From contig NZ_JARUBH010000009.1 of NCBI RefSeq assembly GCF_029626105.1, positions 2,418,001 to 2,482,000 on the forward strand: a stretch of 64,000 bases of DNA, in the 5' to 3' direction. The translations under genes were made by a program, and so were the position numbers. Shown one piece after another: positions 8,401-43,000 of this stretch. Source of the stretch: Solwaraspora sp. WMMD792. GTDB lineage: Bacteria > Actinomycetota > Actinomycetes > Mycobacteriales > Micromonosporaceae. The notes beneath the pieces are model-generated. The model worked only from the letters and a program-made list of their open reading frames with translations. It did no database searches and was not told the origin of the DNA. Position 1 is the first letter of the stretch; each line of letters begins with the position of its first letter.

Positions 8401-9267
8401 CCTCGAGACGAACTGCTGATCGCCAATGGAGTTGGCCAGCCAGAGGATCAGCTCGTCGAGGAAAAGGATCAGGCCGTCGTAGCCGAGATCCTTGGCGTGC
8501 CGGCTGATCTCGGTGAGTCCCCGGTCCAGCGAGATGTACGCTTCGGCGTCCTCGCGGGCGTTGCTGAAGAAGCCTTTGTTCCAGCTGCTGAGCAGGTCGT
8601 TGACGAGCTTGCGCCGCTGCGGGTCCTCGGGGGCGGCGGCGAACGCGGCGTCGAGGCGCGGCCCGGTCCAGTACGCCTCGGAGTCGCCCCATTCGTCGTC
8701 GGGGTCGCCGCCGGGCAGATTGGCGATGAACTGGCCGTCGCCGATCGTCTTGCGCAGTTCGGCGGCTTGTTCCAGCAGCGCGTCGGTGCGGTGCACGGCC
8801 GGGATCGTCGCTCCCGGGTGCAATTGGCGGACCCGGTCGACGTAGCCGCCGAGGACCCGCTGCTCCAGCGACCGGGCGTCGAGCAGGTGGTACGGCACCA
8901 GCAGGAACTGCCGCCCGTCGAGCCAGACACTGTGTTTGGCGACCAGGCCGGAGAACTCCTCGCGGCCCCGGGCGGCCGGCTCACCGCGCAGCAGCGCGTG
9001 CAGTACGGCCATGAAGTGCGACTTGCCGGAACCGAACGATCCGTGCAGGTAGGCAGCCTTGGAGGTGTGGCCTTCGATCGCCGAGCGGATCAGCCCGAGT
9101 GCCTCGTCGAAGTTGCCGACCAGCCGGTCGGTTATCACGTATTCGGCCAGGGTCGCCTTGGCGTCGGTGACGCTGTCCGCCAGCTTGAGCACGAAGTCAC
9201 TGGTGCTGGTCCGCTCCGGGATGCTGATGTACTCCCGCAGCAGCTGAGGTGAGGTCGACGCAGGCAT
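5404..9267 (-). CDS. pglY: BREX-2 P-loop ATPase PglY
   Basis: Large ATPase of the PglY/BrxC group, 1287 residues from the chosen ATG. Walker A is GSFGSGKSH near residue 75 and Walker B is LILFLDELILWL near 262. The C-terminus carries a Pro/Thr-rich linker (about 1180-1230) and a short final domain. An in-frame extension to 9360 exists but lacks PglY-like character; MPASTSPQLLREYISIPERT looks like the true N-terminus. It is the first gene of the pglYZ-brxD-brxHI operon and is about the same length as known PglY proteins. In the Pgl system PglY is essential for resistance and is inferred to hydrolyse ATP. Confidence 0.93.
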   Translation of the reverse strand: MPASTSPQLLREYISIPERTSTSDFVLKLADSVTDAKATLAEYVITDRLVGNFDEALGLIRSAIEGHTSKAAYLHGSFGSGKSHFMAVLHALLRGEPAARGREEFSGLVAKHSVWLDGRQFLLVPYHLLDARSLEQRVLGGYVDRVRQLHPGATIPAVHRTDALLEQAAELRKTIGDGQFIANLPGGDPDDEWGDSEAYWTGPRLDAAFAAAPEDPQRRKLVNDLLSSWNKGFFSNAREDAEAYISLDRGLTEISRHAKDLGYDGLILFLDELILWLANSIGDQQFVSREIQKITNFVEGGDTRRPIPVISFIARQRDLRELVGEGATGAHELSFQDTLNLASGRFDTITLEDRNLPEIARKRLLKPRKDVPGAAEAITAAFDTTTKVRREVWDALLGVDSGAGADLDAFRATYPFSPAFISTLVHVSSALQRSRTALKLMRQLLVDRRETLRLGQLVPLGDLYDVISGGGDQPFTDKLKHEFETAQRIYTGKLRPHLLAQYDLTDEDLDRARRGEELPGPIAARHRGFTGDDRLVKTLLLAALAPSVPALRNLTARRLSALNHGSIVSPIPGGEVAQVLRKVKDWAGVFGEIRVGDGDDPVISLELVGVDVDSVLATAKHYDNDGARKNLVQRLLWDQLGVPWTDTFHAEAELVWRGSRRRLELVYGNVRDDRDLRDDAFQPADPAGWRLIIDYPFDSGTHTPADDRQRVQQLRERINPRTVCWIPASLTLERLNDLGKLAILEKILEGRRFDSHAEHLNPDDRRRALSTLTNQRSNLTGKLRDVLREAYGLATKQPTDVRVGYDDHLEPLIRPFHPTLPVGTSFADALRTIGDQMFTHQFPAHPDLDPDRKGEPVRPADVRIVLDRVNQAIGNPEGRVEVERAHRQTMRRLANPLGLGQMHEAAFVLGNEWVQHFAQRAAVEGIDGELAVRDLLRWIDHPQPRGLDPLVAQLIVAVFAEQTDRMFYLHGAAVSPAPEPGRISTDYTLRSEPLPSEADWTAARDRATRLFGVHKPGLRRGRIVGLLARDLVTEAQRRRGDADDLVAKLEQYAQHLHLDPDAPTGRLATARTAATLLATLAGRAPAVETIEQLARADLGGPAGVDQVARSVTAAAEVRSALVAARWDNLGLIADLPDRYAAEAAAILGKLHAAAQADELTTPLVPVLRRAERDAVELIARVMRERTPAPPTPPQPGSQVTPVAVPPATPPPATPPPTVPSVPNPAIELRPPLADPSQRVTDAAGQVASTTGQATVAAAALDEAVTQLRAFAAAHPDAHVEVSWRVVP

Positions 9268-9375
9268 GACGTTTACCGTACCGAGAGCGACGAAACGCAC
9301 ATCGACCGCGCGGACCGTTTCCGCCCACCGGACCGCCGCCACACTGCCCTCAGTTATCAATCCATCACATGTGGC

Positions 9376-12625: not shown

Positions 12626-12645
12626 TGTGGACTCCGAGATCAGGG

Positions 12646-27047: not shown

Positions 27048-30000
27048 TCACGCCTTCGCTTTGCGGCCCCGGGTCGCCTTCGGCGGACGCCACGAGGTCA
27101 ACGCCTCGTCGGTCAGGTGCAGCCGGTTGGTGGTCTCGTCGAGGAAGCCGGCGTAGATGTCGGCCGGCGACGCGCTCCACTCTGCGTCGAACTCGCTGTG
27201 CCACTGCTTCACCCACGGCAGCACCTCACGCAGACCGGCGACCAGCGGCAGCAGCCGGTCGGCGTCCCAGCCGTCCTCCTGCTCCCGGGCCACGATCAGC
27301 GTGGCGAGGGCCTGCGCCTGCTCCCGGTGGTCCCAGCCGGCCCAGCCGAGCAGCAGCGTCGGATCACCGTCGCGGCTCGACCCCGGGTACGAGATGAACC
27401 GCTCCTTTGGCACATCCAGCTTGCCCCGGTGCCGCCAGTAGCTGTTCTTGACGAAGTCCGCCGACGTGTACTTCGGCGGCACCGGGATCCGCTCCCGCAC
27501 CCGCTTCTTCGCCGGCTCGTCCGGCTGGGCGTCCTCCTCGCGCTGCAGCTGCCACACCTGCTCCCAGTCGGCGCGCTTCACCAAACCGGACGGCTTGTAG
27601 CGCAGCGCCGCCAGGTGCGGTACGTGCTCGTCGGCGACCAGGTCAACGATGACCTTGCCGAGATCCTGGCCCGGCGCGTACAGCTGGGCGACCGCCAACA
27701 CATCGGCGTCGCGGCGCAGCTCGTCGGCCAGCTCGGCGGCGGTCAACGGACGCGGCTGCTCCATCCCGTCGACGGTGTGGAACCACAACTCGCGCGCCTC
27801 GCACCGGTCCAGCAGCCAGTCCCGCAACGCGGCCTGCTCCATCTTGTCCCAGCCATCGGTGGACCAGCGCCGCTTACACTCCGGCCGCTCGATCAGCCCG
27901 ATGTTGCGGTTGCTCTCGATGACGTCGATCCGCCGCTGCACCACCGCCCGATACTCCTGCGGCCAGTGCGCCGGGATCTCGGTGATCGGCGTCGAACCGT
28001 GCCGGTCGAACCACTGCGTTTCCGCCTCGCCGGCCGCGACCTTGCGGGCCAGCACGATCTCGAACGCCCGCTCCCCCAGCCGCAGCTCCGGCACCGATCC
28101 GGCCGGCGCGGTGAACTCCTCGTCGAGCAGCCCGTAGAGCTGGTACACCTGCCAGTCCAGCTCCTCCTGCAACGCGATCATCCGCGCCCGCGTCGAATGC
28201 CACTCGTCGCGCGCCGCCGCCAACCGGTCCCGGGTAGGCACGCTCTCGGCGGCGACCACCGCCGGGCTCACCGCCGCGAGCCGCTGCGCCAGCGAGTCGA
28301 CCTGCTGAGCCACCCCCAACGGGTACGCCGCCGGCAACGGAAACTCCTGCAGCTTGGTCCCCGTGAACTCGTAGAAGTGCTCCCAGTCGTCACTGGTGAA
28401 GCCACCGCCCTCGCCACGGATCCCCTTGTCGTGGCTGACCTGCTTGAGCCAGAAGCACGCCGTCGAGCTGTTGAGTACGCCGAGCAACCGCAGGTGATCC
28501 TCCTCCGACGCCCCCTCCCCCAACTTAATCACCGGCGCCGAACGGTTAAAGACCTTCCCACCCCGGTCCAACACAAAATGATTATGCGTAGCCACAAAAG
28601 CGAACGCAATCGACAACGGCACCCGGTAACGTCGCCCGAAGAACATGGAGTACTCGAACCACTTTAGGCCGCGGTCAATTTGACTGGAACCATACGCAAC
28701 TCGATCTTGCAAAATGCGCCGGAAAGGCCAAAGAAGAGCACTCGCGGGACCGTCTACTGCGGCGGAAAGGTCTTGCTCACGGTACGGCCATATCGAATCA
28801 ATCGGGCTCGACACAGCCCAATCACGAGTAACGTCACCCTCCACCAGGGGGCGCCTGTGACTACGATCCACCGCTTTCCTACGCAGGACTCCTTCGCCGA
28901 GCATATATGCGCCGTCTTCGCGCGTCACGGCACCGAACCCTATCTCCTGGATCGCACTGGTCAAGCGCGCATCTCCGGCCCCTTCAAGTGCAACCTGGAG
29001 GCCAGGAGCTCCACCACCAGCAAGGCTCCATGGGTGTTTGGCGAAGAATTGTCGCGGCACGTCATCGACACTAACCCACACAGACTCAGATTTTGGACTA
29101 TCAACCTGAGAAACAATTGCATTCCAGACAAACCCATCAGCCGGATTCTCCGGTGCATTGGGCTCCCCACGGATGCCAAGTACAGCACGCACGGTATTCA
29201 ACCGATACAAGTTTGTATTCCGGCCCACCAGAATGACCGTCGGCGTGCCATGGCCAGGAATATACGCACCGGAGGTGTCGATCACATGAGTCAGGTTTAC
29301 ATTCAACGCAAAAAGATCCGCAACCAGCCGTTTCCCAAACTCACGCTTCATAAATGAATTCGCGGTGATCTGACCTACGTAGCCGGCGCCCTTACCGTCA
29401 CTGCCGGCCGACCTGGCCAGGTTGAAGAAGCGCTGTGCGAACGGCACCGACAGGGCGTACTCCCGATAACAGGCAGAGTACATCTCCCGGTACGCCTCGT
29501 TGAGGCCCTTGTCCTTGACGGTGATGTAGGGCGGGTTACCGACCACGACGTGGTAGCGGCCGACCTCGCGGATGCCGGGGTGCTCGTCGATGTCCTCGGT
29601 GGCGTAGGTGAACTCGACAATCTTCTCGGCCTCGGGATCCGTACCCGGGATGGTGTTTGCCCGGTGTTTGATCAGGGCGTCGCCTACTGCCAGGTGCATG
29701 GGGAAGGTGTAGCCTGCGACGTCGGCGAGGGACTTGAAGCCGCACGCTTGGATCGCGGCGATCAGCAGCCGGAAACGGGCGATCGACACAGCGAACGGGT
29801 TGATGTCGATGCCGTGCACGGCGTCCAGGGCGAGCCGGACCCGTTCCTGCGGATCCCGGTTCGGGGCGTGCTCCTCCCACTGCTTCAGCAGCCGGTCGAA
29901 CGCGCCGAGCACGAAGTGCCCGGAGCCGCAGGTCGGGTCGATCATCTTGACCACGTCGTGGCCGAACTCGTCGATCGCCGGGGTCAACGTCAGGTCGAGG

Positions 30001-30632
30001 ATGAACTCCTCGACGAAGTCCGGGGTCTGCAGCAACGCATACGTCTTGCGGGCCGCCTCGGACAGGTCCTGGTAGAGGTCACCGAGGAACCGCGTACCCC
30101 ACTCGGGGTCGGTGAAGTCGTGCACCAGCGCCCCGTCCGCGCCCCGCGTCCGCCAGAACGCGACCAGCGACTTCGCCGCGTCATGCGAGAGCGGGATCTG
30201 GTAGAGCGGGTTGTGCCGCTGGTCGAACAGTGACCGGCCGGCCTGGCTAGCGGCGATCGCGTCGAACGCGGTCAGCAGCCAGCCACGCAACGTCTCATGT
30301 GGCTGGTCGCGGAAGAACTGCGCCTCGGCCTCCTCGGCGATCACCATCCGCTCCCCCGGCCCGGCCAGGTACGGATCGGTCAGCAGCGAATTGTCCTCAC
30401 AGAAACGGACGAACACGCTGCCGAGCACCCAGGCCACCGCCGCCTGCGTCACCCGCTCATCGCGCCACGAGGTCCAGGTCGCCGCGGTACGCCCGATCTT
30501 GAAGGCCCGGTCGTATTCGCCGCGCAGCCGGCCGCGCACCTCCTCGACCGCGTCGACCTGCCCTCGCAGGTCGTTTTCCAGCGATTTCACCTGGTTCTTC
30601 AGGTCAACAAGTAGCAGTTTTCGGTCGATCAC
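27048..30632 (-). CDS. pglX: BREX-2 adenine-specific DNA methyltransferase PglX
   Basis: N6-adenine methyltransferase of type 2 BREX, 1194 residues. The S-adenosylmethionine motif is DPTCGSGHFVLGAFD (near residue 230) and the catalytic motif is NPPY (about 364-367). The target-recognition part follows, then a long C-terminal domain. PglX marks host DNA and is part of the exclusion mechanism in Pgl/BREX systems. Residues about 424-700 (28540-29360) are encoded by DNA near 50% G+C, against about 75% in a sampled line of the same gene, which suggests an exchanged recognition domain. A G5-A-G5 tract lies at 28511-28521. The start is a GTG at 30632 with no strong ribosome site. The frame is intact. 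Confidence 0.95.
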   Translation of the reverse strand: MIDRKLLLVDLKNQVKSLENDLRGQVDAVEEVRGRLRGEYDRAFKIGRTAATWTSWRDERVTQAAVAWVLGSVFVRFCEDNSLLTDPYLAGPGERMVIAEEAEAQFFRDQPHETLRGWLLTAFDAIAASQAGRSLFDQRHNPLYQIPLSHDAAKSLVAFWRTRGADGALVHDFTDPEWGTRFLGDLYQDLSEAARKTYALLQTPDFVEEFILDLTLTPAIDEFGHDVVKMIDPTCGSGHFVLGAFDRLLKQWEEHAPNRDPQERVRLALDAVHGIDINPFAVSIARFRLLIAAIQACGFKSLADVAGYTFPMHLAVGDALIKHRANTIPGTDPEAEKIVEFTYATEDIDEHPGIREVGRYHVVVGNPPYITVKDKGLNEAYREMYSACYREYALSVPFAQRFFNLARSAGSDGKGAGYVGQITANSFMKREFGKRLVADLFALNVNLTHVIDTSGAYIPGHGTPTVILVGRNTNLYRLNTVRAVLGIRGEPNAPENPADGFVWNAIVSQVDSPKSESVWVSVDDVPRQFFAKHPWSLAGGGAPGLQVALEGAGDARLTSAIQEIGFGAVTREDGAYMLGEGVLRRKAVDRSHRRPLVEGDVTRDWAVSSPIDSIWPYREQDLSAAVDGPASALLWPFRRILQDRVAYGSSQIDRGLKWFEYSMFFGRRYRVPLSIAFAFVATHNHFVLDRGGKVFNRSAPVIKLGEGASEEDHLRLLGVLNSSTACFWLKQVSHDKGIRGEGGGFTSDDWEHFYEFTGTKLQEFPLPAAYPLGVAQQVDSLAQRLAAVSPAVVAAESVPTRDRLAAARDEWHSTRARMIALQEELDWQVYQLYGLLDEEFTAPAGSVPELRLGERAFEIVLARKVAAGEAETQWFDRHGSTPITEIPAHWPQEYRAVVQRRIDVIESNRNIGLIERPECKRRWSTDGWDKMEQAALRDWLLDRCEARELWFHTVDGMEQPRPLTAAELADELRRDADVLAVAQLYAPGQDLGKVIVDLVADEHVPHLAALRYKPSGLVKRADWEQVWQLQREEDAQPDEPAKKRVRERIPVPPKYTSADFVKNSYWRHRGKLDVPKERFISYPGSSRDGDPTLLLGWAGWDHREQAQALATLIVAREQEDGWDADRLLPLVAGLREVLPWVKQWHSEFDAEWSASPADIYAGFLDETTNRLHLTDEALTSWRPPKATRGRKAKA

Positions 30633-30729: not shown

Positions 30730-31767
30730 TCACGCCAGAAGCTCCTCCACCCGTCGGCGCTTCTCCCCCGGAATCTGTTGCAAAATCGACTCGGCATGCT
30801 CCTGCGTGACCAGGGCGAGCAATACCGCAATCCGCCCTTCCCACAAGCCCATAAGGGCGTGGGCCGCCCGGTCGGCCGGCAGCCCGGCCACCACGTGACA
30901 CGCCCGCCGTGCCGGCATTCGACGAAACAGCCTGGTGAGACTTATGTCTTCTACTTCTGCCAGTAGATCCGAAGCCCGCTCGACCAGCACATCATCGGAC
31001 ATCCCGCCGAGCAATTCGCTGAAGTTTGATAAGTCTGATACGGCAATAACCCGCGCGGCTTTACCCGCCGAGATCGCGGTCAGCCACTTAGCAGCATACG
31101 ATGAAGGAAAAAAAGAGATCAGGTTCTCGACGGTCTCGGCCGACATGGCCTCCAACAGCTCCACCCACGAGCTGAACTCTAGCTCAACCATGAACCGAAT
31201 CAATCGATCTGCGGGGATCGCCGCGAACATAGCCGCCGCATTCCAACGCCCCGTGCCTCTGCGCGACAAATCCACTGCAAGTCTCGCAGCAGCTACATCC
31301 GCGAAAGTCATGAGGATCTGGGCTGTCCTTTGGGGCTCCATCTCCGACAGCAGCCGCAGCTTCGACTCCTGCGAGTGCTGTACTACCAGCTCGGCGGCCG
31401 GTTCGGCAGGCATATGGCTCAGGATGGCGGCGGCCTGGGTATCGGGAATCCTTACCAGTCGTTCGTAGGCCAACTGGTGGTCCATCCGGGCCAGAATCTG
31501 CCCGGCCGACTCCGGTGGCATCGCCTGCAGACGGAGGCGGGCTACCTCCGGGTCCATGTCGGCGACGATCACCACTGCCTCGTCACGGGTGTCGGCACTG
31601 GCCGCCATCTCGGTCAGGACCTGCGCCGCCGCCGCGACGTTCAGCACCGTCAGCTTGCGGGCGTTCGCGTGCGGCTCACCGGAGATCACGATGTCCCGCC
31701 CAGCCTGAAACACCTGCCCCTGCCCATCCGCCGAGGCGTTCATGCTGGTGTCACCGGCTGACGGCAC
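30730..31767 (-). CDS. MgtE-N/FliG-like helical-repeat protein, paralogue 1
   Basis: A 345-residue protein. The start is a GTG at 31767 with GGGAGGG five bases upstream. It opens with an element containing GQVFQAGRDIVISG, a short beta motif found at the N-terminus of many actinobacterial conflict-system proteins. The rest is made of roughly 30-residue helical repeats with an M-x-P-E-x-A-x-x-I-L-A-x-M pattern, resembling the MgtE N-terminal or FliG armadillo-like domain. No membrane segment or enzyme motif is present, so it is not a magnesium transporter. It lies about 100 bases upstream of pglX on the same strand, beside a paralogue. It may be a scaffold or adaptor; the function is unknown. 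Confidence 0.8.
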   Translation of the reverse strand: MPSAGDTSMNASADGQGQVFQAGRDIVISGEPHANARKLTVLNVAAAAQVLTEMAASADTRDEAVVIVADMDPEVARLRLQAMPPESAGQILARMDHQLAYERLVRIPDTQAAAILSHMPAEPAAELVVQHSQESKLRLLSEMEPQRTAQILMTFADVAAARLAVDLSRRGTGRWNAAAMFAAIPADRLIRFMVELEFSSWVELLEAMSAETVENLISFFPSSYAAKWLTAISAGKAARVIAVSDLSNFSELLGGMSDDVLVERASDLLAEVEDISLTRLFRRMPARRACHVVAGLPADRAAHALMGLWEGRIAVLLALVTQEHAESILQQIPGEKRRRVEELLA

Positions 31768-31791
31768 GTCGACCCTCCCGCCCAATCATCG

Positions 31792-31815
31792 GTCGCTGGT
31801 GGTGACCACCATAGA
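31792..31815. promoter_or_regulatory. Conserved upstream palindrome, copy 1
   Basis: On the minus strand this reads GTCTATGGTGGTCACCACC followed by AGCGA, containing the palindrome GTGGTCACCAC. The same element lies at the matching position upstream of the second paralogue. It starts 24 bases before the GTG at 31767 and may be an operator or promoter remnant kept after duplication. Confidence 0.4.
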
Positions 31816-31838
31816 CACCAGCGTCACCAACGCGCCGC

Positions 31839-32777
31839 CTACCACAGGTGAGGCTTGACGACCTGCTGCTTCGCCTCCGGCATCTGCCGCACGATCTCGG
31901 CGGCCCGTTCCTCGGGAACCTGAGCGAGCAGCACGGCGCACCGCGTCTCCGGCACGCCCGCGAGGGCAGCGGCCACCCGATCATCCGTCAGACCGTTCAG
32001 CAGCGTGCCAGCCCGCCAGACCGGCTTGAGGAGAGTGAACACCGTTCTCAGGTAATCCTCATCCACCTTAGACAGCAGCGAGCCACTGCGCGCGGTGAGT
32101 GCTTCGCTTGACATGTTGGCGAATGCCACGACCGTCGCCTCGGCAGATGCAGCAGCCACCACCCGCGCGGCTTCGGCACTCGACAGCCACGCCAACCAGT
32201 ATGCGCCGTGCGCAATCGTAAACGGAATAAGCGCCATCAGGACCGGAAAAGACCAATTGATCTCAAGCCGTGCAGGGAACTCGATCAGTAGCTCTGCTAC
32301 CAGTGAATCCGGCATCTGGGCCAGGATCGCCGTCACCTCTTCTGGTTCCATCCTGGCCAGCTGCTGCACCGTGCGTTCCGGCGGAAGCTCGGCGGCGAGC
32401 ATGGCTGCGGACCAGACCGGCATGCACCTCAGGATGGCTGCACCCGCGCCATTCGGGATCTTCGTGAACCGCTGGAGGACCAACTGGTGGTCCATCCGGG
32501 CCAGGATCTGCGCGGCCCACTCTGGCTGCATTGCACCGAGTCGACTCGCCGCCACCTCCGAATCCATGTCGGCGACAATCACCACAGCCTCGTCACGGGT
32601 CTCGGCACTGGCCGCCATCTCGGTCAGGACCTGCGCCGCCGCCGCGACGTTCAGCACCGTCAGCTTGCGGACATTTGCGTGCGGCTGACCGGAGATCACG
32701 ATGTCCCGCCCAGCCTGAAACACCTGCCCCTGCCCATCCGCTGAGGCGTTCATGCTGGTGTCACCCGCTGACGGCAC
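31839..32777 (-). CDS. MgtE-N/FliG-like helical-repeat protein, paralogue 2
   Basis: A 312-residue paralogue of the gene at 31767. The start is a GTG at 32777 with AGGAG seven bases upstream. The first 60 or so residues, including QAGRDIVISG and LTEMAASAETRDEAVVIVADM, are almost identical to paralogue 1 at DNA level. The middle diverges and carries a hydrophobic stretch (NWSFPVLMALIPFTIAHGAY) that could be buried or weakly membrane-associated. The C-terminal repeats (LAGVPETRCAVLLAQVPEERA) return to the MgtE-N/FliG-like pattern. The gap to paralogue 1 is 71 bases. A dispersed 66-bp element lies 61 bases upstream of the start. Confidence 0.8.
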   Translation of the reverse strand: MPSAGDTSMNASADGQGQVFQAGRDIVISGQPHANVRKLTVLNVAAAAQVLTEMAASAETRDEAVVIVADMDSEVAASRLGAMQPEWAAQILARMDHQLVLQRFTKIPNGAGAAILRCMPVWSAAMLAAELPPERTVQQLARMEPEEVTAILAQMPDSLVAELLIEFPARLEINWSFPVLMALIPFTIAHGAYWLAWLSSAEAARVVAAASAEATVVAFANMSSEALTARSGSLLSKVDEDYLRTVFTLLKPVWRAGTLLNGLTDDRVAAALAGVPETRCAVLLAQVPEERAAEIVRQMPEAKQQVVKPHLW

Positions 32778-32801: not shown

Positions 32802-32825
32802 TCGCCAGTGGTGACCACGATAGAC
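32802..32825. promoter_or_regulatory. Conserved upstream palindrome, copy 2
   Basis: Matches copy 1 at 31792-31815. The minus strand reads GTCTATCGTGGTCACCACT followed by GGCGA, with the palindrome GTGGTCACCAC. It lies between the dispersed 66-bp element and the GTG at 32777. Confidence 0.4.
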
Positions 32826-32902: not shown

Positions 32903-33036
32903 GGTGGTTCCGCGGTAGTGGATCACAAGTTGAGCCGCAGTGCTGGGCCACGGTGGTGCCGGGCTGCCCCTGAGCGCGGAGCGCGCCAGCGACTCGGCCA
33001 CAATGATCTGCGACGGGCCGGACACAGGAAGTGATC

Positions 33037-33771
33037 ATGGGGCATGTTGACAGCGGGTCGGGCACCCCTCCACCGGCACCGGGCGGCCTGCCGTCGCTGC
33101 CCGAGGTGTTCGGTGTCATCGTGCCCATCGTGATCGCGGCGGGCACACTCATCGGCTTCGCCGCTGGCGGCGTCGACGGGGTGGCCATCATCGGTCCGAT
33201 CTCCGCGGTCCTCGCCCCCGTTGCGGCCTGGGGGTGGTACGCGGCGCAGCAGACACAGGTCCGGCAGGGCCGGGCGGTCGTACCGCTGCCGTGGTCCCTG
33301 CTGATCCTGGTGCTGGTGCTGCCCGTCGCGCTGGTGGTGTGGCTGCCCTCGGCGAGTGGCCAGCTCCGCCCCGAGGACGAGGAGTCACCGACGCCCATCT
33401 GGTCAACCACGCCGTCGCCGACCCCGACGCCCACCGGGTCACCCGCACCGACACCGACGCCCACCCCGACTCCGTCGCCGACCCCGGCACCCAGCCCCAC
33501 CGAGGATCCGGTGCTCGGCTGGCCGACCGACGCCAACGACGGGCCGCCGAAGCTCTGGGCCTACTTCGGCTCGGAGTTCTTCTTCCCCGACTGGGTCTCC
33601 TGTCACGACAATGACTGCCTGGTCGGCGAAGGCACCCAGGTGCACGTCTACACGCTCGACCCGTTGGGCCGCGACCGGACGTTCCGTGGTGACGTCGCCG
33701 ACCCGGTCACCACGCTGATCAGTGAGGGCTTCACCCCGACGCAGGCGTACGCGCTGCTCGAAGACCACTAG
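33037..33771 (+). CDS. Membrane protein with Pro/Thr linker
   Basis: A 244-residue protein. AGGAA lies about 7 bases before the ATG at 33037. There are three likely transmembrane segments: FGVIVPIVIAAGTLIGFAAG, a second weak one around AIIGPISAVLAPVAAW, and SLLILVLVLPVALVVWL. A low-complexity Pro/Thr/Ser linker (about residues 125-165) follows, then a C-terminal domain of about 80 residues with two cysteines (SCHDNDC). The final segment, DPVTTLISEGFTPTQAYALL, resembles a UBA-like helix pair, but weakly. It faces the AbiEi/DUF559 gene convergently. No function is assigned. Confidence 0.72.
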   Translation: MGHVDSGSGTPPPAPGGLPSLPEVFGVIVPIVIAAGTLIGFAAGGVDGVAIIGPISAVLAPVAAWGWYAAQQTQVRQGRAVVPLPWSLLILVLVLPVALVVWLPSASGQLRPEDEESPTPIWSTTPSPTPTPTGSPAPTPTPTPTPSPTPAPSPTEDPVLGWPTDANDGPPKLWAYFGSEFFFPDWVSCHDNDCLVGEGTQVHVYTLDPLGRDRTFRGDVADPVTTLISEGFTPTQAYALLEDH

Positions 33772-33783
33772 TGACGCGGGCCG

Positions 33784-33806
33784 GCTGACCGGGGTGGCCG
33801 GTCAGC
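33784..33806. terminator. Bidirectional terminator hairpin
   Basis: A perfect 9-bp stem GCTGACCGG / CCGGTCAGC has a 5-base loop. It sits between the convergent genes ending at 33771 and 33802, and the minus-strand stop codon lies inside the stem. Confidence 0.6.
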
Positions 33807-34818
33807 GGCGGGCGGCCAGCACGGCGAGGATCTCCCGGCGCACCTCGGCGGTGTCGTGCACCAGCCGCCGGTGGCTGAACCGCACCACCTGGATGCCCAG
33901 CGTGGCCAGCCAGGCGTCCCGACGCAGATCCACCTCCCGCTGACCGGGCGCGCCGTGCACGCTCGCGCCGTCCAGCTCGAACGCGACCCGTTGCGCCTCG
34001 GCGTACACGTCGAGGTAGCAGGTGCGCCGCCCGTCGCTGACCCGCACCTGCCGGCGCAGCGGCGGCATCCGGGCACCGGTGAAGACGTGGTCGTGACCCC
34101 AGATCTCCAACGGGCTGTGGCAGCCGGCCGCCAGCTTGCCCAGCAGCTCCCGTAGCTGCGCCCGGCCGGGCAGCTTCGGCGCGCCGGCCAGCGCCGCGCC
34201 GATGCGCCCCGGGGTGCTGTGCCGCCCCGCCACCGCCTGGATCACCGGGCCGCGCCGCTCGCCGGCCGGCAGCAGCGGCCACGAGTCGACCAGGGCCCGG
34301 TCCAGCCGGGTCACCGGCACCCCGTGGCGGGTCAGCGTGTCCGGCGCGTCGAGGCTGAACCCGCGTACGTGGTGCACCACCAGCCCGGGGTGGCTGCTCA
34401 GCCGTACCGTCGCCGGGACCGTCAGGTGCACCGGCTCGCCAGCGGTCGGCTGCCACAGCCCCCACAGGTGCAGCGCGGTCAGGTGGCTGAACGCGCCCCG
34501 CCCGTCGGCGTAGCCCAGCGCCGCCCGCCGGGCCCGTGCCGGGTCGAGCCCGCCCAGCCCGGCGGCCGGATACCGGCCGGGGTCGCCGGTGCCGGTCACG
34601 TCAACGGTGCCGACACCGACCACGCCACCGGCACCGGTGCCGGTGCCGGTGGCGGTGGCGAGCAGCGTGGTGTCGGCGTACACGCCGGGCAGGATTCGGC
34701 GCACCCGCCCTTCGCGGCGGGCCACGTCGATCGCCCAGGACGGGACCACTTCGGCGGCGTCGCGCCGGCAGAGTACGCCGTGGTTGCGGTCGAGCAGGGT
34801 ACGCAGCTGCGGGTCCAT
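33802..34818 (-). CDS. AbiEi-like HTH plus DUF559 endonuclease-like protein
   Basis: A 338-residue protein. Residues 1-45 (LLDRNHGVLCRRDAAEVVPS, then a pattern ending GVY) match the AbiEi-type N-terminal helix-turn-helix. The C-terminal 100 residues fit DUF559, a Vsr-like endonuclease-fold domain, with RVAFELDGASVHG, DLRRDAWLATLGIQVVRF and a closing helix. This architecture is common in actinobacteria, often near mobile or defence genes, and is annotated either as antitoxin-like or as nuclease-like. Its role is not established. A low-complexity Gly/Thr/Val segment (about 55-85) interrupts the middle. A dispersed 66-bp element lies 89 bases upstream. Confidence 0.8.
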   Translation of the reverse strand: MDPQLRTLLDRNHGVLCRRDAAEVVPSWAIDVARREGRVRRILPGVYADTTLLATATGTGTGAGGVVGVGTVDVTGTGDPGRYPAAGLGGLDPARARRAALGYADGRGAFSHLTALHLWGLWQPTAGEPVHLTVPATVRLSSHPGLVVHHVRGFSLDAPDTLTRHGVPVTRLDRALVDSWPLLPAGERRGPVIQAVAGRHSTPGRIGAALAGAPKLPGRAQLRELLGKLAAGCHSPLEIWGHDHVFTGARMPPLRRQVRVSDGRRTCYLDVYAEAQRVAFELDGASVHGAPGQREVDLRRDAWLATLGIQVVRFSHRRLVHDTAEVRREILAVLAARR

Positions 34819-35022: not shown

Positions 35023-38000
35023 TCAGGCCGCCACGCTGCGGTGGGCGTTGGCCACCCATGCGTCCGGCAGCGGAATCCACTCGTTCTCGCTGACCCGCAC
35101 CACCTCACCGTCGAGTTTCGGCAGCGCCTGCGGATCCTCGGCCGGGCAGAGCAGCCACAGGGTGCCCGCACCGGAGCGGGCCGCCTCCGCGAGGGTGTCC
35201 AGCCGGGGCATCGACCGCCAGCGGGCCAACGGTGCCGCGTCGTGCAGCAGCAGCGGCCCAGCGGACCCGCCGGGTGCAGCGGATGCGCCGGACACAGCGG
35301 GTGAGCCGGGGTCAGCCGGTGGGGTCGTCGCGCCCAGCTCGGCCAGCAGTTCGGGCAGGGCCCGCTGCCACGCCTCGTCGACGTACTCGCCGAACTTCAG
35401 TGCCGCCCGCGAACCCGGCTCGGCCAGGTCCGCGCCGAGCACCGTGGCCCAGGTCGGCTTCGGACGCGAGTCGACCAGGGCCCGCAGGTGCCGCAGGAAC
35501 CGGTCGGCCACACTCACCGGCCGGGCACCGAAGCGGCGGACCAGCTCGTCGGCGGCGGCCGGGTAGCGGCTCAGCCGCACCGTCAACGCCCGGAAACCGT
35601 CACCGGGGGCGGACAGCCGCTCCTCGGCACGCAGCGCCGCCGCCAACTCCGGTGAGTCGGCCAGCCAGGACGTCGTCGGCGTCGACGCCGACGACCGACG
35701 CCGGATGATCGACATCGACGACGACAGTGGACGGGGCGGGGCCACCCACACGTCGCCGACCATCCGCAGGTCGAAGCCGGCCTGGGCGAGCAGTTTGTCC
35801 AGTTGCGCCGGTGGCGGCAGGGGGTCCAGCTCCGGGAACCGGCCACGGACCCGGGCGGCGATCTGCTCGGCGGTCAGCGTCGCCTGCCGGTGCACCGCAC
35901 CGGGGACACCTGACGTCGCGCCCGACCCGTCAGTCGACGGCGTGGACGGTGCGGTCCTCGACGCGGTCGGCTGGCCCGGGCCGGCCGCCGGCAGCACACC
36001 GGCCTGCGACAGCCGCAACGCCCGCACCGGCGACAGATCCTTCGGGTAGATCTCCAGCCGGGCGTTGGCCGCCGCCCGCTGGGCGGCGGCGGCGGCCAGG
36101 GTCACCCGGCGGCGTTCGTCGACCACCTCGGCCGCGCCGCCCGGGGCGCTCACCCCGGCGAGGGTACGCAGCACCGTCGCCGGGCTGGGCAGCACCTCAC
36201 TGTCGGCGAGCCGGTCAGCGGCCCGACCGAGCGCGTCGGCGTAGTCCAGCAGCGCCGGGGCGGTCGGAGTGTCCGGCGGGTCGTCGTCACCGGCTTCCAA
36301 CGCCACCAGCAACCGGTCCGCCACCGGCTCCCGTACCGTGGGCTGCGGACCTGCGGCGGTGCCGCCGTCGCCGGCCGACCCGGGGTGGGTGTCGCTGTGC
36401 CGGCGCAGCAGCAGCCGCTGATCCTCCTCCAACGCGTCGATCTCGATCGCCGCCCGCACCGCCGCCCGGGCCACCGCCATCCGCACCTGCTCGCCGGTGC
36501 GCACCGAACCCCGGCTGGCCAGCAACGCGGCCGCCAACTCGTCGACCGACATCACCCGGCCGCTGTCGGCCAGCAACCCGATCACCTGGGTACGCAGACT
36601 GCGTACCACCGGCAGGCCGCGCCACCGGCGACGCTGCTTGCCGAGGATCTGCGCGATCCGGCCCGGGGTGACCGAGACCGCCTTGGCGACCAGTGGCTGC
36701 CGGGGCCACGGCGGCAGGTCCGGCAGCACGCCACGGGCATCGGGCAGGGCCAGCAGCAGCCGGGTGGCCTGCGCCTCGGTCGGGTTACGGGTGTTCGGCG
36801 CGGGCACCAGCAGCGCGGCGACTGCGTCGAGGCCGACCCGCAGCAGCTCCACGTCGCCTTCGGCGCCAGCAGCGACCGGGGTCGCTTCGGCGGAGGCGGC
36901 GCGGCGTTCCGCCTGGCTGGCCGCCACCGGCTCCCGTTCGCCGAGCCGGGCCCGCCACTCCTTCACCCGGCGCTGCAGCTCCTGGCGGGTACGGGCACCG
37001 AGCCCGCGCAGGTGTGCCAGCCGGGGCGCCACCGTGAGCAGGTCACCGACGGTGTTGGCGTCCAGCCGATGGGCGGCGGAGATCGCCCGGGGAGTCAGCC
37101 CGGCGGACTCCAACGCCGTCGCCCGGGTCGCCCGGGTCGCCGCCTCGTCGCGGGCCGCCGCGGCGGCGTCGGCGTCGATCTCGTCGTCGAGCGGCTCCGG
37201 ATGGTCGGTGCCGGCCGGGGCGCTCGCGTCGGATTGGCGGAACAGCCGCTGCCAGGCGTCGCGCATGTCCTTGAGCGAGCCGAACCGGCGACGCGCGTCG
37301 CGGTGCAGCGCCTCCTCGAAGAAGGCGATCAGGCCGTCACGGATCGCCGGGTCGAACGCCTCGGCCGCCAGCAGCGGCGGGCCGTCGGTCAACTGCGGCT
37401 CGGTGGCCCCGTCACCCCAGACCGGCAGCTCACCGGAGGCCATCTCGTGCAGGGTGACCGCCAGGGCGTACCACTCGGCCGACCGGTCGAACACCGGCCG
37501 CTCGGCAGTGCCGAGGAACGGGTCGAGGTAGCGCGGCGTACCGGCGGTGATCTCCTTGACCGACACGGCGGCCAACGAGAAGTCGAACAGCACCAGCTGC
37601 CGGGTGCGGTTGGTACGAATGCGGATGGCGATGTTGTCCGGCTTGATGTCGCGGTGGTAGACGCCTTCGCCTTCGAGGTAGTCCAGCGCGCCGAACAGGT
37701 AGTCGCTGTAGTTTTCCAACTCGTCGACGGTGAGCCGGCCCTCGTCGCGCAGCTGCCGGGCCAGGGTCCGCTCGCCGGCGTGTTCGAGCACGATCAGCGT
37801 ACGGTTGCCGATCTGCAGCGGATCGGGTCGGGCCAGCCGGATCACCCGGGAGTCGGTCAGCGGCCCGAGCACCTCGGCCTCGCGGGCCAGTCGGGTTGCC
37901 TTCTCGTCGGAGAGACCGACCTTGAGCACCTCGTCACGGCCGGTCCGGTCGTTGTGGGCCAGGAAGGCCCGGCAGGTCGACCCGGTGCCGAGCCGCTTGG

Positions 38001-39795
38001 TGATCGTCCACTCGCCGACGGTGTCGCCCGGCCGCGCCTCCAGCGGATCGACCTGGACCAGCTCCTGGACCAGCTCCGGTTCCGGTCGGCTCGGATCCGG
38101 CGCGGCGCCGGTCACGGGATCCGTCGCAGAGCCGGTCGCCCGGTCCGTGGTGTCCGCAGGCGCCGTCGTCGAGGTGACCGCCGGCGGCGATGGTGGGGCG
38201 GTCAGCTCGTCCTCGACCACCTCCAGCATCTCCACGAACTCGGCGACCGTGGTCAGCCGCTGGGTCGGCACCGGTGCGGTCGCCGCCTGGATCAGCTCGT
38301 CGGCGAACTGCGAGGCGGTGTCGGTCACCGCCGACGCCCGCAGCCCGTTCTCCTTGGCGAGCCGGGCGAGCAGTTCGGTGCGTTTGCCGGCCGGCGGCTG
38401 CCCGGTCAGGATCAGGTACGCCACCGCGCCGAGCCCGAAGACGTCCATCGCCACCGGGTCCGGCGCCGGGGAGCTCAACTCGGGGGCGAGGTACGCCTCG
38501 GCGGAGCGTTCCAGATGGTCGGCGGCGTGGCTGGAGGCGAGGATCGGCTCGTCGGATCCGGTGCCGGCGGTGCCGACCGTGGCGCTGCCCGCGCCGTCGG
38601 CGGCCCGGGTCGCCGCCTGCCAGTCGCTGACCAGCAGCTGCGGATAGAGCCAGCCGACCTCGTCGTTGCCGCGCCGCCGGCCCGGTGCCGGGGTGACGAA
38701 GATGCTGCGCGCCGACAACGCCCGGTGGTGCAGGTGCCGGCCGTGGGCGTACGCCAGGGTCTCAGCCAGTTGCCGGATCATGGTGACCCGACTGGCCGGT
38801 TCGAGCCGGTCGCCGTACTGCGCGAGGTAGTGGTCCAGCCGCAGCCAGCGAGGGTCGTGGCGGAACACCAGCGCCGGGCCGGCCTCGTGCGGCTCCATCG
38901 CGTCGACCTGGACGATGTTGGGGTGGCTGATGCCGTGCAGCACCCGCATCTCCCGGCGGGCGGCCCGCTCGATGCTGGCCCGCTGTGCCTGCACCGCGTT
39001 GCGTTCCACCAGGTAGATCCGCACCCGGCGGCGCTCCCGGGGCAGTTCCCGGTGGGTGGCGTGGTGGTCCTGCCAGGTGGGCCCGACGTCGAACGGGCGG
39101 GGCTGCAACTCCCAGGAGCCGATCTGCAGGTGCCGGCGGCTACGGGCGATGCCGACCTTCTCCAGCAGGCCCGGCAGGGCGCGGGACAGCTCCGGGGTGA
39201 CCCGGTGGCGTTCATCGGTGGGTGGACGTAGTAGCAGGCCGGTGCCGATCGGCGGCAGGTCGCCGCTGCTGCCGCCACCAACGGCAGGCTCGCGGCCAGC
39301 GGTCTCCCGGTCGGCGGGCGGCTGTGGGCCGTACACGTTGTGCCGGTGGTGGTCGGACAGGGCCACCTTCAGGCCAGGTTTGCTGAGGAAGACCGCCGCC
39401 TGGATGAACGGCACCCGGATCCGGTTGCCGCGCCCGCCGCCGCTGGCCGCCGCAGCCGCCTGCAGGAGTGATTTGAGGCGTTTCGCCTTAGCGTCGGCCA
39501 GGTGCAGCGGGTTGTCGAGGGTGTGCACACCGCCACCGGACTGCTGGTGAATCCAGTTGGACCCGCTGGAGATCAGCCGGCCGGTGAAGCTCTTGATCTC
39601 GATCAGGTGCAGCCCGCCGGGCGTGGCGACCAGCAGGTCGACCTCGTACGGATGCCCGGTGTCGGCGGTGAAGGTGAGGTTGGACCAGGCCCGGAACGGC
39701 TCGGTGTCGGGCAGCAGCTCCTGCAGGTGTGCCAGCGCTTCGCGTTCGTGTGCGAACTGCGACGGCGTGATCGACGTCCACCGGCCCTCCTGCAT
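35023..39795 (-). CDS. pglW: BREX-2 protein kinase PglW (NERD plus two kinase domains)
   Basis: A 1590-residue protein. The N-terminus is a NERD domain (about 12-130) with nuclease-like residues in YEVDLLVATPGGLHLIEIKS. A first kinase-like domain (about 230-420) looks inactive: HHRALSARSIF replaces the HRD loop and SDWQAA replaces DFG. A second kinase domain (about 570-830) keeps the Lys (EVLKVGL), YHRDIKPDNIAI (near 710) and LFDFSLA. A downstream TVGDLLTVAPRLAHLRGLG segment resembles the RpoA C-terminal helix-hairpin fold. PglW phosphorylates in the Pgl system and is essential for resistance. I chose the ATG at 39795, just before the NERD domain; an ATG at 39861 abuts repeat copy C. Confidence 0.92.
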   Translation of the reverse strand: MQEGRWTSITPSQFAHEREALAHLQELLPDTEPFRAWSNLTFTADTGHPYEVDLLVATPGGLHLIEIKSFTGRLISSGSNWIHQQSGGGVHTLDNPLHLADAKAKRLKSLLQAAAAASGGGRGNRIRVPFIQAAVFLSKPGLKVALSDHHRHNVYGPQPPADRETAGREPAVGGGSSGDLPPIGTGLLLRPPTDERHRVTPELSRALPGLLEKVGIARSRRHLQIGSWELQPRPFDVGPTWQDHHATHRELPRERRRVRIYLVERNAVQAQRASIERAARREMRVLHGISHPNIVQVDAMEPHEAGPALVFRHDPRWLRLDHYLAQYGDRLEPASRVTMIRQLAETLAYAHGRHLHHRALSARSIFVTPAPGRRRGNDEVGWLYPQLLVSDWQAATRAADGAGSATVGTAGTGSDEPILASSHAADHLERSAEAYLAPELSSPAPDPVAMDVFGLGAVAYLILTGQPPAGKRTELLARLAKENGLRASAVTDTASQFADELIQAATAPVPTQRLTTVAEFVEMLEVVEDELTAPPSPPAVTSTTAPADTTDRATGSATDPVTGAAPDPSRPEPELVQELVQVDPLEARPGDTVGEWTITKRLGTGSTCRAFLAHNDRTGRDEVLKVGLSDEKATRLAREAEVLGPLTDSRVIRLARPDPLQIGNRTLIVLEHAGERTLARQLRDEGRLTVDELENYSDYLFGALDYLEGEGVYHRDIKPDNIAIRIRTNRTRQLVLFDFSLAAVSVKEITAGTPRYLDPFLGTAERPVFDRSAEWYALAVTLHEMASGELPVWGDGATEPQLTDGPPLLAAEAFDPAIRDGLIAFFEEALHRDARRRFGSLKDMRDAWQRLFRQSDASAPAGTDHPEPLDDEIDADAAAAARDEAATRATRATALESAGLTPRAISAAHRLDANTVGDLLTVAPRLAHLRGLGARTRQELQRRVKEWRARLGEREPVAASQAERRAASAEATPVAAGAEGDVELLRVGLDAVAALLVPAPNTRNPTEAQATRLLLALPDARGVLPDLPPWPRQPLVAKAVSVTPGRIAQILGKQRRRWRGLPVVRSLRTQVIGLLADSGRVMSVDELAAALLASRGSVRTGEQVRMAVARAAVRAAIEIDALEEDQRLLLRRHSDTHPGSAGDGGTAAGPQPTVREPVADRLLVALEAGDDDPPDTPTAPALLDYADALGRAADRLADSEVLPSPATVLRTLAGVSAPGGAAEVVDERRRVTLAAAAAQRAAANARLEIYPKDLSPVRALRLSQAGVLPAAGPGQPTASRTAPSTPSTDGSGATSGVPGAVHRQATLTAEQIAARVRGRFPELDPLPPPAQLDKLLAQAGFDLRMVGDVWVAPPRPLSSSMSIIRRRSSASTPTTSWLADSPELAAALRAEERLSAPGDGFRALTVRLSRYPAAADELVRRFGARPVSVADRFLRHLRALVDSRPKPTWATVLGADLAEPGSRAALKFGEYVDEAWQRALPELLAELGATTPPADPGSPAVSGASAAPGGSAGPLLLHDAAPLARWRSMPRLDTLAEAARSGAGTLWLLCPAEDPQALPKLDGEVVRVSENEWIPLPDAWVANAHRSVAA

Positions 39796-39861
39796 GCCTG
39801 CGATCCTATGGGCCGGGGCAACCTGAGGCGGCAGGCCGTCCCCGCTGGCCGGGTTGGTCAT

Positions 39862-39928
39862 GATCGGATGCGGGTGATCTGACGAGGTGTCGGCGTGTCG
39901 AGTCGACCAGGCGAAGTCGATCAACGAG
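39862..39928 (-). repeat. Dispersed 66-bp element, copy C
   Basis: The minus strand contains CGCCTGGTCGACTCGACACG and ends CACCCGCATCCGATC. It lies 66 bases upstream of the pglW start and marks the right edge of the defence island. Confidence 0.85.
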
Positions 39929-39951
39929 CTGGGGGTGGCTAGAGGCGACGC

Positions 39952-40000
39952 GGGCCTTGGTGGCCGTGACCCGGGTACCGGGTCACGGCCACCAAGGCCC
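39952..40000. terminator. Perfect long hairpin terminator
   Basis: Two 22-base arms, the first beginning GGGCCTTGGTGGCC, are exact inverted repeats around a 5-base loop. The hairpin lies 19 bases past the stop of the subtilisin-like protease gene at 40019 and upstream of pglW. It is a strong candidate terminator for the protease gene and insulates the two regions. Confidence 0.75.
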
Positions 40001-40018
40001 TTCGGGGAGTGCGTGACG

Positions 40019-43000
40019 TCAGTCGGCGGCGGCCAGCCGGTAGGCGTGGAGCACCGTCTGGGTGAACGTGTTGCCCTGGCGGTCCTCGGCACCGAACCGC
40101 AGCGACACGTACCCGTCGCTGTCGGGGTGCTGCACCGTGGCCACCCAGTTGCGGCCGTCGGCACGGACCGGGGCCGGCAGCCAGGTGGTGCCGCCGTCGT
40201 AGGAGACGTCGACCGACAGCGCGTCCAGATTGACCGTGACGCCGGTCTGCCGGCGGACCGTCACCGGGATGTCGACCTGCTCTCCGGCCGGGGCGGTGCC
40301 GGCCTCGTCGACCGGCGGCGCGGGGCGGGCCACCATCACCGGCAGCCGGCGCCACTCGTCGCCGTTGACCCGCCCGGACTGGAAGGTCCAGGCCATGTCG
40401 ACCTCGGTGGCCAGATCACCGGCGTCGCGGGTGGCGGAGGTCTCCAGCCGGTAGCCGGCCTGACCGGGCGGGACGACGAAGTAGCCGAACCCGCCGACCT
40501 CCCACTCGTCTACGAGTTCGCCGTCGCGGTAGAGGGCGGTGCGTGCGGTGACTGTCTGCGAGTCGCCGGCGTGCCCGGCGGCGTCGCCGAACAGCGGGAC
40601 CTCCGCCACGATCTCGTCGCCGATCCGGCTGACCCAGCCGCGCGGTACGGTCGTCGCCGGCATGGCCGGACCGAACGGCGGCAGGTTCCAGGTGTCGGTG
40701 TGCCGGCCCTCGGGGGCGTACGCGCGGGCCGGGTCGAACAGGAACGACACCGGTTCCAGCCAACCGTCCTCGCCGAGGTGGTTGGAGAAGTACAGGTCGG
40801 AGAACCAGGCCACCTGGTCGGTGCTGAACCATTCGATCCGTTCACCGGGGACGGGCACCACGGTGACCTCGCTGAGCGCGCCCAGCGCCGGGTCGTCGAA
40901 CTCGGCGACGAGCAGCCGGTCAGAGACGTCACCGGTCGGGGTGCCCCGGAAGTCCTGCCGGACCCGGGCCAGGTCGTCGGTGGCGTAGTCGCGCTGGTAA
41001 CCGGTCGGCAGCCGGCCGTCGAAGACCTCGCTCAGCGCGTACGCGAACGGGCTGTTCGCGTACCCGCCGTCGGGGTCCGGCTTGAACCACTGGTGGGAGA
41101 TGGCGGAGCTGAACCCAGGTGCCGGCTCGTCGCCGCCGATCTGCCTGGTCGACAACCCGTCGAATCCGGGGTACGCGGAGCCGATGCCCACCGGGCCGTC
41201 GACGGTGTCGAAGCCGACCGTGACGTCGACGATCGCCGCTCGGGCAGCCGGTTGCGGCACGGTGGCCTGCACCGGTGCGGCCTGCCGGGCGTCCAGGGTG
41301 ACCGTGGTTTCCCCGGTGACGATTATCCGGGGCTGGGCAAGGATCGCGCTGCCGGTCTGCCGGCCCTCCGTATCGAATGCGTCGATGGCGGCGAACAGGC
41401 CGTACGCACCCTTGGGCAGCCGCGTGACGACGGTGCCGTCCTCGTCGTACGGGTAGTCGAAGTACGGGAGGTTCAGGCCGGCCAGCACGGTCCAGTACGA
41501 CTCCGACGGATCGCCGTCGGCGCCGATGTGCGACAGGGTCACGTCGTAGCTCTCGACCTCGCGGTGCACCCCGACGGGCGTGACGACGCGGGTCTGCCCG
41601 GCGGTGGCGACCAGTTGGCCGCTGTAATAGCCGTCGGCGGCGTCGACCCTGGTGTCGGCGGTGGCGTCGACGCTGGCCGTACCCCCGGCGGGCACCTCGA
41701 CCTGAGCGGCGCTGGTGGTGAACATGCCAGCCGGGACGGAGGCACCTGCCGGTCCGGTGATCTCCCAGGTCAGGTCGAGGGTGACCGGCTCGGTGCCGGT
41801 GTTGCGGTAGGTGACGGACCGGGTGATCGGCTCGTCGTCCTGGTGCGGCCAGGCCGCGCGGCCGTAGGAGATGCTGGCCGGTGCGGCGGTCACCGTCTGG
41901 GTGACGGCGCGGGCCACGTCGACCAGGCCGGCACCCTGCTGGTACGCGCCGGTGCCGGGGTGCGGCGCGGCGGACCCCATCAAAGTGGACTTGAACTGAT
42001 CCGCGGTCCACTCCTGCTGCTGTTGGGCGAGCAGCGCGACGGCGCCGGTGACGTGCGGCGCGGACATCGACGTGCCCGGCGCGGAGACGTAGTGTTCGTC
42101 GATCGGAATGTCGAGGGTGGTGCCCTCGGCGCGGGCGGCGACGATGTCGACACCGGGTGCGGTGATGTCGGGTTTGACGGCGTCGTCGCCGACCCGGGGG
42201 CCGCGGCTGGAGAAGTCGGCCAGCGTACCGTCGCGGTCGACCGCGCCGACGGTCAGCGCCGCGTCGGCGCTGCCGGGTGAGCCGACGGTACGCTCGGCGC
42301 CGGAGTTGCCGGCGGCGATGACGAACAGGGTGCCGGTCTGCTCGGTGAGGGTGTTGACCGCCTCCTCGAGAGGGTCGATCTCGGGTCCGTCGCCACCACC
42401 GATGCTGATGTTGACCACCGGGACCTGCTTGTCCACGGCGAACCAGTGCATCGCGTCGATCATCGCCGAGTCGTCGCACCAGGCGGCCGGGCAGACCTTC
42501 GCGGAGATGATCTTCGCGTCCGGGGCGACGCCCTGGTACTTACCACCGGAGGCGGCACCGCTGCCGGCGATGATTGAGGCGACGTGGGTGCCGTGGCCGG
42601 TGGTGTCGCCCTCCTCCGGCGCGTCGGTGAAGTTACGCGTCTCGATGACGACGTCGGTCAGGTCGGGGTGTCCGGTATCGACGCCGCTGTCCATCACACC
42701 GACGGTGACGCCGGCGCCGGTGAATCCGGCCTGGTGGGCGGCGGGCGCGCCGATCTGCGCGACGCTGCGGTCCAGCAGCATCTGCCGTTTGCCGTCCAGC
42801 CAGATCCGCTCGACGCCGGTGTCGGCGCCCCGGGCGGCCGGGCCGCCGGACACCGTGGACCACAGGTCGGTAATGGTGGACTTGTCGGCGGTCACCGCCG
42901 CACCGTCGATCGCCGGCAGGTCACGTTGGACGTCGAGACCGTCGGCCGCGAGTGCCGCGACGCTACGGGTGGCGGTGTCTCCCGGCGCGGCGGTGACGAT

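What the first reader, a model, noticed from the sequence alone, without database searches (positions are those of the whole stretch)
30730..32777. Tandem MgtE-N/FliG-like repeat proteins with a QAGRDI N-terminus inside a BREX-2 locus
Two paralogues sit between pglW and pglX. Seen: a shared N-terminal GQVFQAGRDIVISG element and helical repeats with the M-x-P-E-x-A-x-x-I-L-A-x-M pattern, with no enzyme motif. Known: the MgtE N-domain and FliG share such armadillo-like repeats, and QAGRD-type N-termini occur in actinobacterial conflict proteins. Inference: these are adaptor or sensor proteins of an undescribed defence module, or accessory BREX factors.
Basis: partly seen in the sequence, partly recalled or inferred. 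Interest (0 to 1): 0.75.

Follow-up and report, generated by a model that had tools for sequence, protein, structure and literature searches.

The report
Amyloid-motif sensor pair in BREX-2
Two neighbouring genes inside a bacterial anti-phage (BREX) locus encode repeat proteins that begin with a short tag resembling those of bacterial amyloid ('prion-like') death signalling, which suggests that such signalling may also be run by sensors quite unlike the immune receptors (NLRs) it was described with.

Summary
Window 30730-32777 (minus strand) encodes two tandem paralogues, each with a GQVFQAGRDIVIS N-terminus and MgtE_N/FliG-type helical repeats, between pglX and pglW of a BREX-2 locus that also has pglZ and pglY. 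The N-terminus is the informative part. In five relatives (four genomes) found through the repeats, the repeat gene sits beside (4) or is fused to (1) a small gene whose C-terminus carries the same kind of motif: the layout described for BASS/BELL amyloid signalosomes, but with a P-loop-free repeat protein instead of an NLR. The same unit lies on a Streptomyces plasmid. The window pair has no BELL gene beside it. Its genome encodes V[FY]QA[GA]RD at exactly three places: the pair, and the C-terminus of a BELL-like protein about 220 kb away that overlaps an NLR-like gene. AlphaFold2 predicts a beta-hairpin on the motif, then an array of short helices. Central repeats diverge far faster than neighbouring genes. 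Best explanation: NTPase-free, diversifying sensors that pass a templated beta signal to a BELL effector; BREX is a landing site (the pglW-pglX cargo slot), not the partner. Amyloid formation and in-trans signalling are untested.

The parts
30730..31785 (-). Repeat protein copy a: motif plus 25 short predicted helices (likely start GTG at 31767)
31839..32777 (-). Repeat protein copy b, paralogue (312 aa)
31681..31716 (-). Copy a BASS-like motif QVFQAGRDIVIS, predicted beta-hairpin (strands 25-28 and 31-34)
32691..32726 (-). Copy b BASS-like motif QVFQAGRDIVIS
31799..31814 (-). Box CTATGGTGGTCACCAC upstream of copy a (palindromic core), possible operator or promoter element
32808..32823 (-). 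Same box upstream of copy b (CTATCGTGGTCACCAC)
27048..30632 (-). pglX, BREX-2 methyltransferase: context
35023..40164 (-). pglW, NERD-kinase: context; the pglW-pglX gap is a variable cargo slot
33802..34818 (-). DUF559/AbiEi-like gene in the same slot: context
2609..5407 (-). pglZ: context
5404..9360 (-). pglY (BrxC): context

Best explanation
The pair are sensors of a BELL-type amyloid-signalling pathway in which a MgtE-N/FliG-like repeat rod replaces the NLR. Shown by sequence: the motif, the repeats, the absence of a P-loop, the BELL-like neighbour or fusion in relatives, and the matched motifs. Predicted: the motif is a beta-hairpin (beta-arch-like) and the repeats are an array of short helices whose central units diverge fast. 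Inferred: the array is a superhelical rod; ligand binding along it (phage or stress cue unknown) clusters the proteins, their N-terminal motifs stack into a cross-beta seed, and the seed templates the C-terminal tail of a BELL protein, whose helical bundle then attacks the membrane and stops or kills the cell. In the window genome the effector would act in trans: the BELL-like protein encoded beside the NLR-like (P-loop, TPR) gene. The pglW-pglX interval is a landing slot that puts this suicidal layer beside BREX.
For: Motif-bearing repeat proteins outside the window's genus that were found through the repeat sequence, without reference to BELL: 5 of 5 beside (G172, G050, G706 twice) or fused in one ORF to (G726) a BELL-like domain. 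A sixth, on a Streptomyces plasmid, was found through BELL. BELL C-termini resemble their own neighbour's N-terminus more than other neighbours' (21 pairs, permutation p 1e-5; 13 representatives p 3e-5). Pattern V[FY]QA[GA]RD: exactly 3 places in each of the window genome and G002, reversed-pattern control 0; the third place is a BELL C-terminus in both. That BELL overlaps a gene with P-loop, TPRs and a like motif. AlphaFold2: hairpin on the motif plus helix array, pLDDT 86.8; BELL five helices with a disordered motif tail. Central repeats 38-49% identical between orthologues against 85-96% for six other genes of the island. BELL genes lie within 10 kb of pglX for 4 of 28 places against 0.083 expected.
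Against: No BELL gene was found in the window or beside the G002 pair, so the in-trans link is inferred; the own-genome BELL tail ranks only 11th of 21 against the window motif (score 44, best 64). The published BASS and BELL profiles could not be run and the founding paper is not held. Motif blocks 21-40 have only moderate pLDDT (62 and 71), from a 4-row alignment; the BELL model is weaker (69.3, 2 rows). The nSTAND match of the NLR-like gene is under the curated cut-off (30.1 of 34 bits). The most hydrophobic 19-residue stretch of two BELLs averages only 1.37 and 1.62, weak for a membrane helix. There is no evidence here of fibrils, membrane activity or phage defence.
Confidence: 0.6

Rival explanations
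1. The motif is an ordinary beta-hairpin docking tag, not an amyloid seed. The repeat protein binds and restrains the BELL-like protein as antitoxin or chaperone, and a phage trigger releases it.
For: Two-gene, often overlapping units with cognate motifs on both proteins. The hairpin is predicted without any fibril context. The repeat gene can also come first (second G706 locus).
Against: In G726 BELL and repeats are fused and keep one motif, which needs no docking pair. In 17 of the 21 pairs the partner has a P-loop, the setting in which BASS motifs were reported to behave as prions or form foci when tested (passages of PMC7889193, and PMC9815663).
Confidence: 0.2
2. The window pair are orphans or decoys: the BELL gene was lost, and the proteins now dampen the genome's BELL/NLR-like pathway or do nothing.
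For: No BELL beside the pair in the window or in G002. Two copies with the same motif but diverging repeats. The own BELL is not the best motif match.
Against: Both copies are open and syntenic in two species, the first 20 columns with the motif are 95-100% identical in all six comparisons, and an upstream box recurs, with 1-2 mismatches in G002.
Confidence: 0.15
3. They are true accessory BREX-2 factors that bind PglW or PglX.
For: Located in the pglW-pglX slot in three genomes representing two BREX-2 clades (PglX 84% and 55% identical to the window's).
Against: Half of the proteins found are not at a detected BREX locus. No relative was found in the 40 other pglX stretches fetched, of which L150, L156 and L159 did not reach pglW. 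No other gene of the window encodes V[FY]QA[GA]RD; a much looser pattern hits NsnA (residue 335 of 362), the helicase and DUF559, read as chance.
Confidence: 0.1
4. Magnesium- or motor-related proteins (MgtE or FliG relatives in function).
For: MgtE_N and FliG profile hits, FlbB below cut-off.
Against: No CBS or membrane domain was matched in either protein. Similar repeats sit on kinase and HTH-like proteins, so they look like a generic solenoid.
Confidence: 0.03

Closest known systems
BASS/BELL-NLR amyloid signalosomes (Dyrka et al. 2020, known here only through passages of PMC7889193, PMC8086366, PMC12261475, PMC9815663)
   Same: Short shared motif at the N-terminus of the sensor and the C-terminus of a small helical BELL protein encoded by the adjacent or overlapping gene; actinobacterial hosts.
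   Different: Sensor is a MgtE-N/FliG-like repeat protein with no P-loop; the window copies are tandem, without adjacent BELL, in a BREX locus.
Fungal HET-S/NWD2 and mammalian RHIM signalling
   Same: Proposed logic: receptor-side motif templates effector-side motif (review passages).
   Different: No homology tested; receptors are NLRs or kinases.
MgtE transporter N-domain and FliG
   Same: Helical repeat unit by profile.
   Different: No CBS, membrane or complete FliG domains; N-terminal motif instead.
BREX-2 (Pgl)
   Same: Genomic setting with pglW, pglX, pglY, pglZ.
   Different: The pair is cargo, not found in the 40 other pglX stretches fetched.

Membership tests
BASS/BELL-NLR signalosome | Motif at sensor N-terminus | tested here: met
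   Motif of this kind present; kinship to a named BASS family not tested
BASS/BELL-NLR signalosome | Adjacent gene for BELL with cognate C-terminal motif | tested here: not met
   Not met in window or G002; met in 4 of 5 relatives found through the repeats and fused in the fifth
BASS/BELL-NLR signalosome | Sensor is an NLR with NTPase domain | tested here: not met
   No P-loop in 9 of 9 proteins scanned; Pfam shows the repeats and no NTPase
BASS/BELL-NLR signalosome | Match to published BASS1-10 and BELL profiles | not tested
   Profiles not held; founding paper not held
BASS/BELL-NLR signalosome | Motif forms fibrils and seeds partner | not testable with these tools
   needs bench work
MgtE Mg2+ transporter | CBS and membrane domains after the N domain | tested here: not met
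FliG | FliG_N, FliG_M and FliG_C in order | tested here: not met
   FliG_M over cut-off in both, FliG_N only in copy b, FliG_C in neither; short, overlapping matches
BREX-2 | Locus holds pglW, pglX, pglY, pglZ | tested here: met
BREX-2 | The pair is a conserved BREX-2 component | tested here: not met
   0 of 40 other pglX stretches fetched; motif-type proteins in 3 of 86 genomes with PglX

The most novel reading that the evidence does not exclude
A class of NTPase-free amyloid signalosomes: fast-diversifying 12-residue-repeat rods, not NLRs, sense infection and nucleate a cross-beta signal read by BELL effectors, one effector serving several sensors in trans (BREX-embedded tandem rods and an NLR-like receptor), with other NTPase-less sensors (TPR-only, membrane-anchored, unknown 390-aa) plugging into the same kind of BELL tail.
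Probability: 0.35. Interest if true: 0.85.

Novelty: new variant of a known kind. Interest (0 to 1): 0.7.

Why it matters
[quoted passage not shown] This family is a concrete NLR-free candidate, some members of which sit in an anti-phage locus, so both questions become testable in one system.

Tried and rejected
A single-protein scan of genome contigs gave no relative; the alignment scan gave 2 loci. Viral contigs, plasmids with the window protein and phages with the plasmid relative gave none. A class-wide profile search (394 genomes) matched 79 genomes at E <= 1e-8; apart from G000 and G050 the best match had E 2.4e-12 and none reaches the start of the motif columns. I looked inside only two of these (L034, L058: kinase plus MgtE repeats) and take the rest to be mainly transporters, unverified. 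In the family search 13 of 354 genomes matched at E <= 1e-10: 6 have the motif type, the other 7 HTH-like or similar N-termini without it, read by eye. For three of these seven (G028, G058, G077) 19-kb stretches were searched and held no BELL (0 of 3). Considered and rejected: Mg2+ transport, flagellar role, BREX core component. Co-occurrence of the motif type with pglX by genome is unremarkable (3 of 6 against 86 of 354; binomial about 0.16, my own arithmetic, no call); only the position between pglW and pglX is notable. Faster divergence of surface-like repeat positions is not proof of positive selection. In the cognate test 21 of the 32 BELL places were used; 11 without a recognisable motif-bearing neighbour were left out, so the test says that matched pairs match, not that all BELLs have one.

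Full report
What is there. Two minus-strand genes lie at 30730-31785 and 31839-32777. Both carry MgtE_N and FliG_M matches over the curated cut-offs and no P-loop. AlphaFold2 on a four-row alignment (window pair plus L062 and L063) models copy a at mean pLDDT 86.8: a beta-hairpin at residues 25-28 and 31-34, exactly on VFQA-GR-DIVI, then 25 short helices, 20 of the 24 start-to-start spacings being 12 residues. Foldseek's best PDB matches are armadillo proteins at E 4e-4 with TM-scores of 0.13-0.29 in the 13 rows at E <= 0.001, so the match is to a repeat class, not to one fold. By sequence profile MgtE is the best PDB match (2yvy, E 5e-4), followed by fibroin-modulator-binding protein (5d23, 0.0011); FliG (5tdy) is at 0.031.

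Setting. The island holds PglZ and PglY, Menshen-like NsnA, NsnB and NsnC, a DruE-like helicase, PglX, the pair, an AbiEi/DUF559-like gene and PglW. It is thus BREX-2 with extra defence cargo; separate BrxHI and BrxD genes were not looked for. Forty other pglX stretches were fetched, from 40 of the 86 matching genomes. In three (L150, L156, L159) no pglW was seen; in the others the pglW-pglX gap runs from about 40 bp or less (L170-L173, L176) to more than 7 kb. Cargo in that gap includes Shedu (L163) and GmrSD/AAA_15 (L166) genes. None of the 40 stretches has a relative of the pair.

The motif is the clue. The small protein ends RGRVFQIAQGHMTITES and the repeat protein has HGHVYQIAHGNMYI near its start. 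G050 and one G706 locus (M. maritima by the same reasoning) repeat this layout; a second G706 locus has it in reverse gene order; in G726 both parts form one ORF with a single motif. A Streptomyces sp. NBC_01220 plasmid has the same unit, both genes annotated as hypothetical. A review describes this layout as BASS motifs in BELL and NLR proteins (PMC7889193, passages). The name BELL-like is given here by layout and description; the published profile was not run. Its model is five helices with a disordered C-terminal tail that bears the motif (mean pLDDT 69.3), which agrees with the review's 'alpha-helical bundle'; a strongly hydrophobic helix was not seen.

Matching of motifs. Twenty-one BELL tails score 51.8 on average against their own neighbour and 32.3 against others (permutation p 1e-5; 13 representatives p 3e-5). 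Of the 32 BELL places, 17 have a neighbour with a P-loop that also shares a motif, 4 precede another P-loop gene that I read as thymidine-kinase-like (recall, no call), 8 show no P-loop and 3 have no next ORF. NTPase-less motif-bearing partners seen, here and among 28 further loci, are the MgtE type, a TPR-only protein (L188), a protein with one membrane-like stretch by eye (L186) and a 390-aa protein (L147, L156).

The window genome. It has one BELL-like gene at E 1e-10 or better, about 220 kb away, overlapping by 4 bases a 1098-aa gene with P-loop, TPRs, a sub-cut-off nSTAND match (30.1 of 34 bits) and GQVFQAAGDQHITI near its start. V[FY]QA[GA]RD is encoded at three places in each of two genomes, with zero for the reversed pattern. 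Five of the seven genomes of the genus have this BELL; the pair occurs in two of seven. So the pair could feed a shared effector in trans. This is inference: the own BELL tail ranks 11th of 21 against the window motif.

Diversification. Between the two species copy b is 95-100% identical over the first 62 columns, 38-49% in central repeats and 68-81% near the end, while PglW, DUF559 and the helicase are 96%, the 246-aa gene 91%, the 386-aa gene 88% and PglX 85% identical. Three of the hydrophobic register positions (0, 5, 8) hold better than most others between orthologues, as any folded repeat would show. The picture is of a fixed tag on a fast-changing rod.

BREX link. Among the 300 genomes, 22 have both BELL and PglX; 4 of their 28 BELL places lie within 10 kb of pglX (0.083 expected; P 2e-6; leaving out G172, 3 seen, P 7e-5; also counting G206 and G222 as one event, 2 seen, P 0.003). 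Three of the four (G172, G222, G206) are between pglW and pglX; the fourth (G120) lies beyond the 3' end of pglX and its neighbour shows no motif. Defence-island clustering alone could cause this.

Literature. No paper joining MgtE repeats to amyloid signalling or to BREX came up in the listings of searches (open-licence PMC papers only); the one paper holding both 'MgtE' and 'BREX' in one search is a poplar-endophyte genome study, seen only as a listing. A 2026 BREX survey (PMC12839542, passages; supplements not seen) has no mention of MgtE, amyloid or NLR in its main text. The founding BASS paper is not held, so whether it notes non-NLR sensors is unknown; the review mentions CHAT and TIR domains on BASS proteins besides BELL.

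Noticed in passing
L147:11717-13325 (G222) and L156:2688-3119 with its neighbour (G206): A second BELL-like gene plus a 390-aa gene (no Pfam match for the G222 copy) sharing a GRDxYxAGRDL-like motif, also between pglW and pglX.
   Followed up: partly
L186:341-1492 and L188:11-1495: BELL neighbours without P-loop: a protein with a membrane-like stretch (GWILQAGRDLIIHL) and a TPR-only protein (QSYQAARDLHITY).
   Followed up: partly
L034:349-2118, L058:1249-2889, L068-L070: MgtE-type repeats fused to Ser/Thr kinase or HTH-like domains: the solenoid seems a general plug-in module.
   Followed up: partly
31799-31814 and 32808-32823: CTATNGTGGTCACCAC box 31 and 30 bases before the GTG of the two copies, without mismatch; two further window matches have 2 mismatches (12343, 48569), 0.08 expected in all; like boxes in G002 with 1-2 mismatches.
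   Followed up: partly
11702-14879: NsnABC (Menshen-like) genes inside the BREX-2 island.
   Followed up: no
16345-24689: DruE-like DEAD/MZB helicase ORF overlapping by 202 bp a 1113-aa ORF with no family above cut-off.
   Followed up: no
51887-61057: 3056-aa protein with an N-terminal WXG100-like domain (Pfam E 5e-13); possibly a secreted polymorphic toxin (guess).
   Followed up: no
33031-33771: Opposite-strand 246-aa proline-rich, membrane-type (by eye) protein beside the pair, 91% identical in G002, no Pfam family.
   Followed up: no
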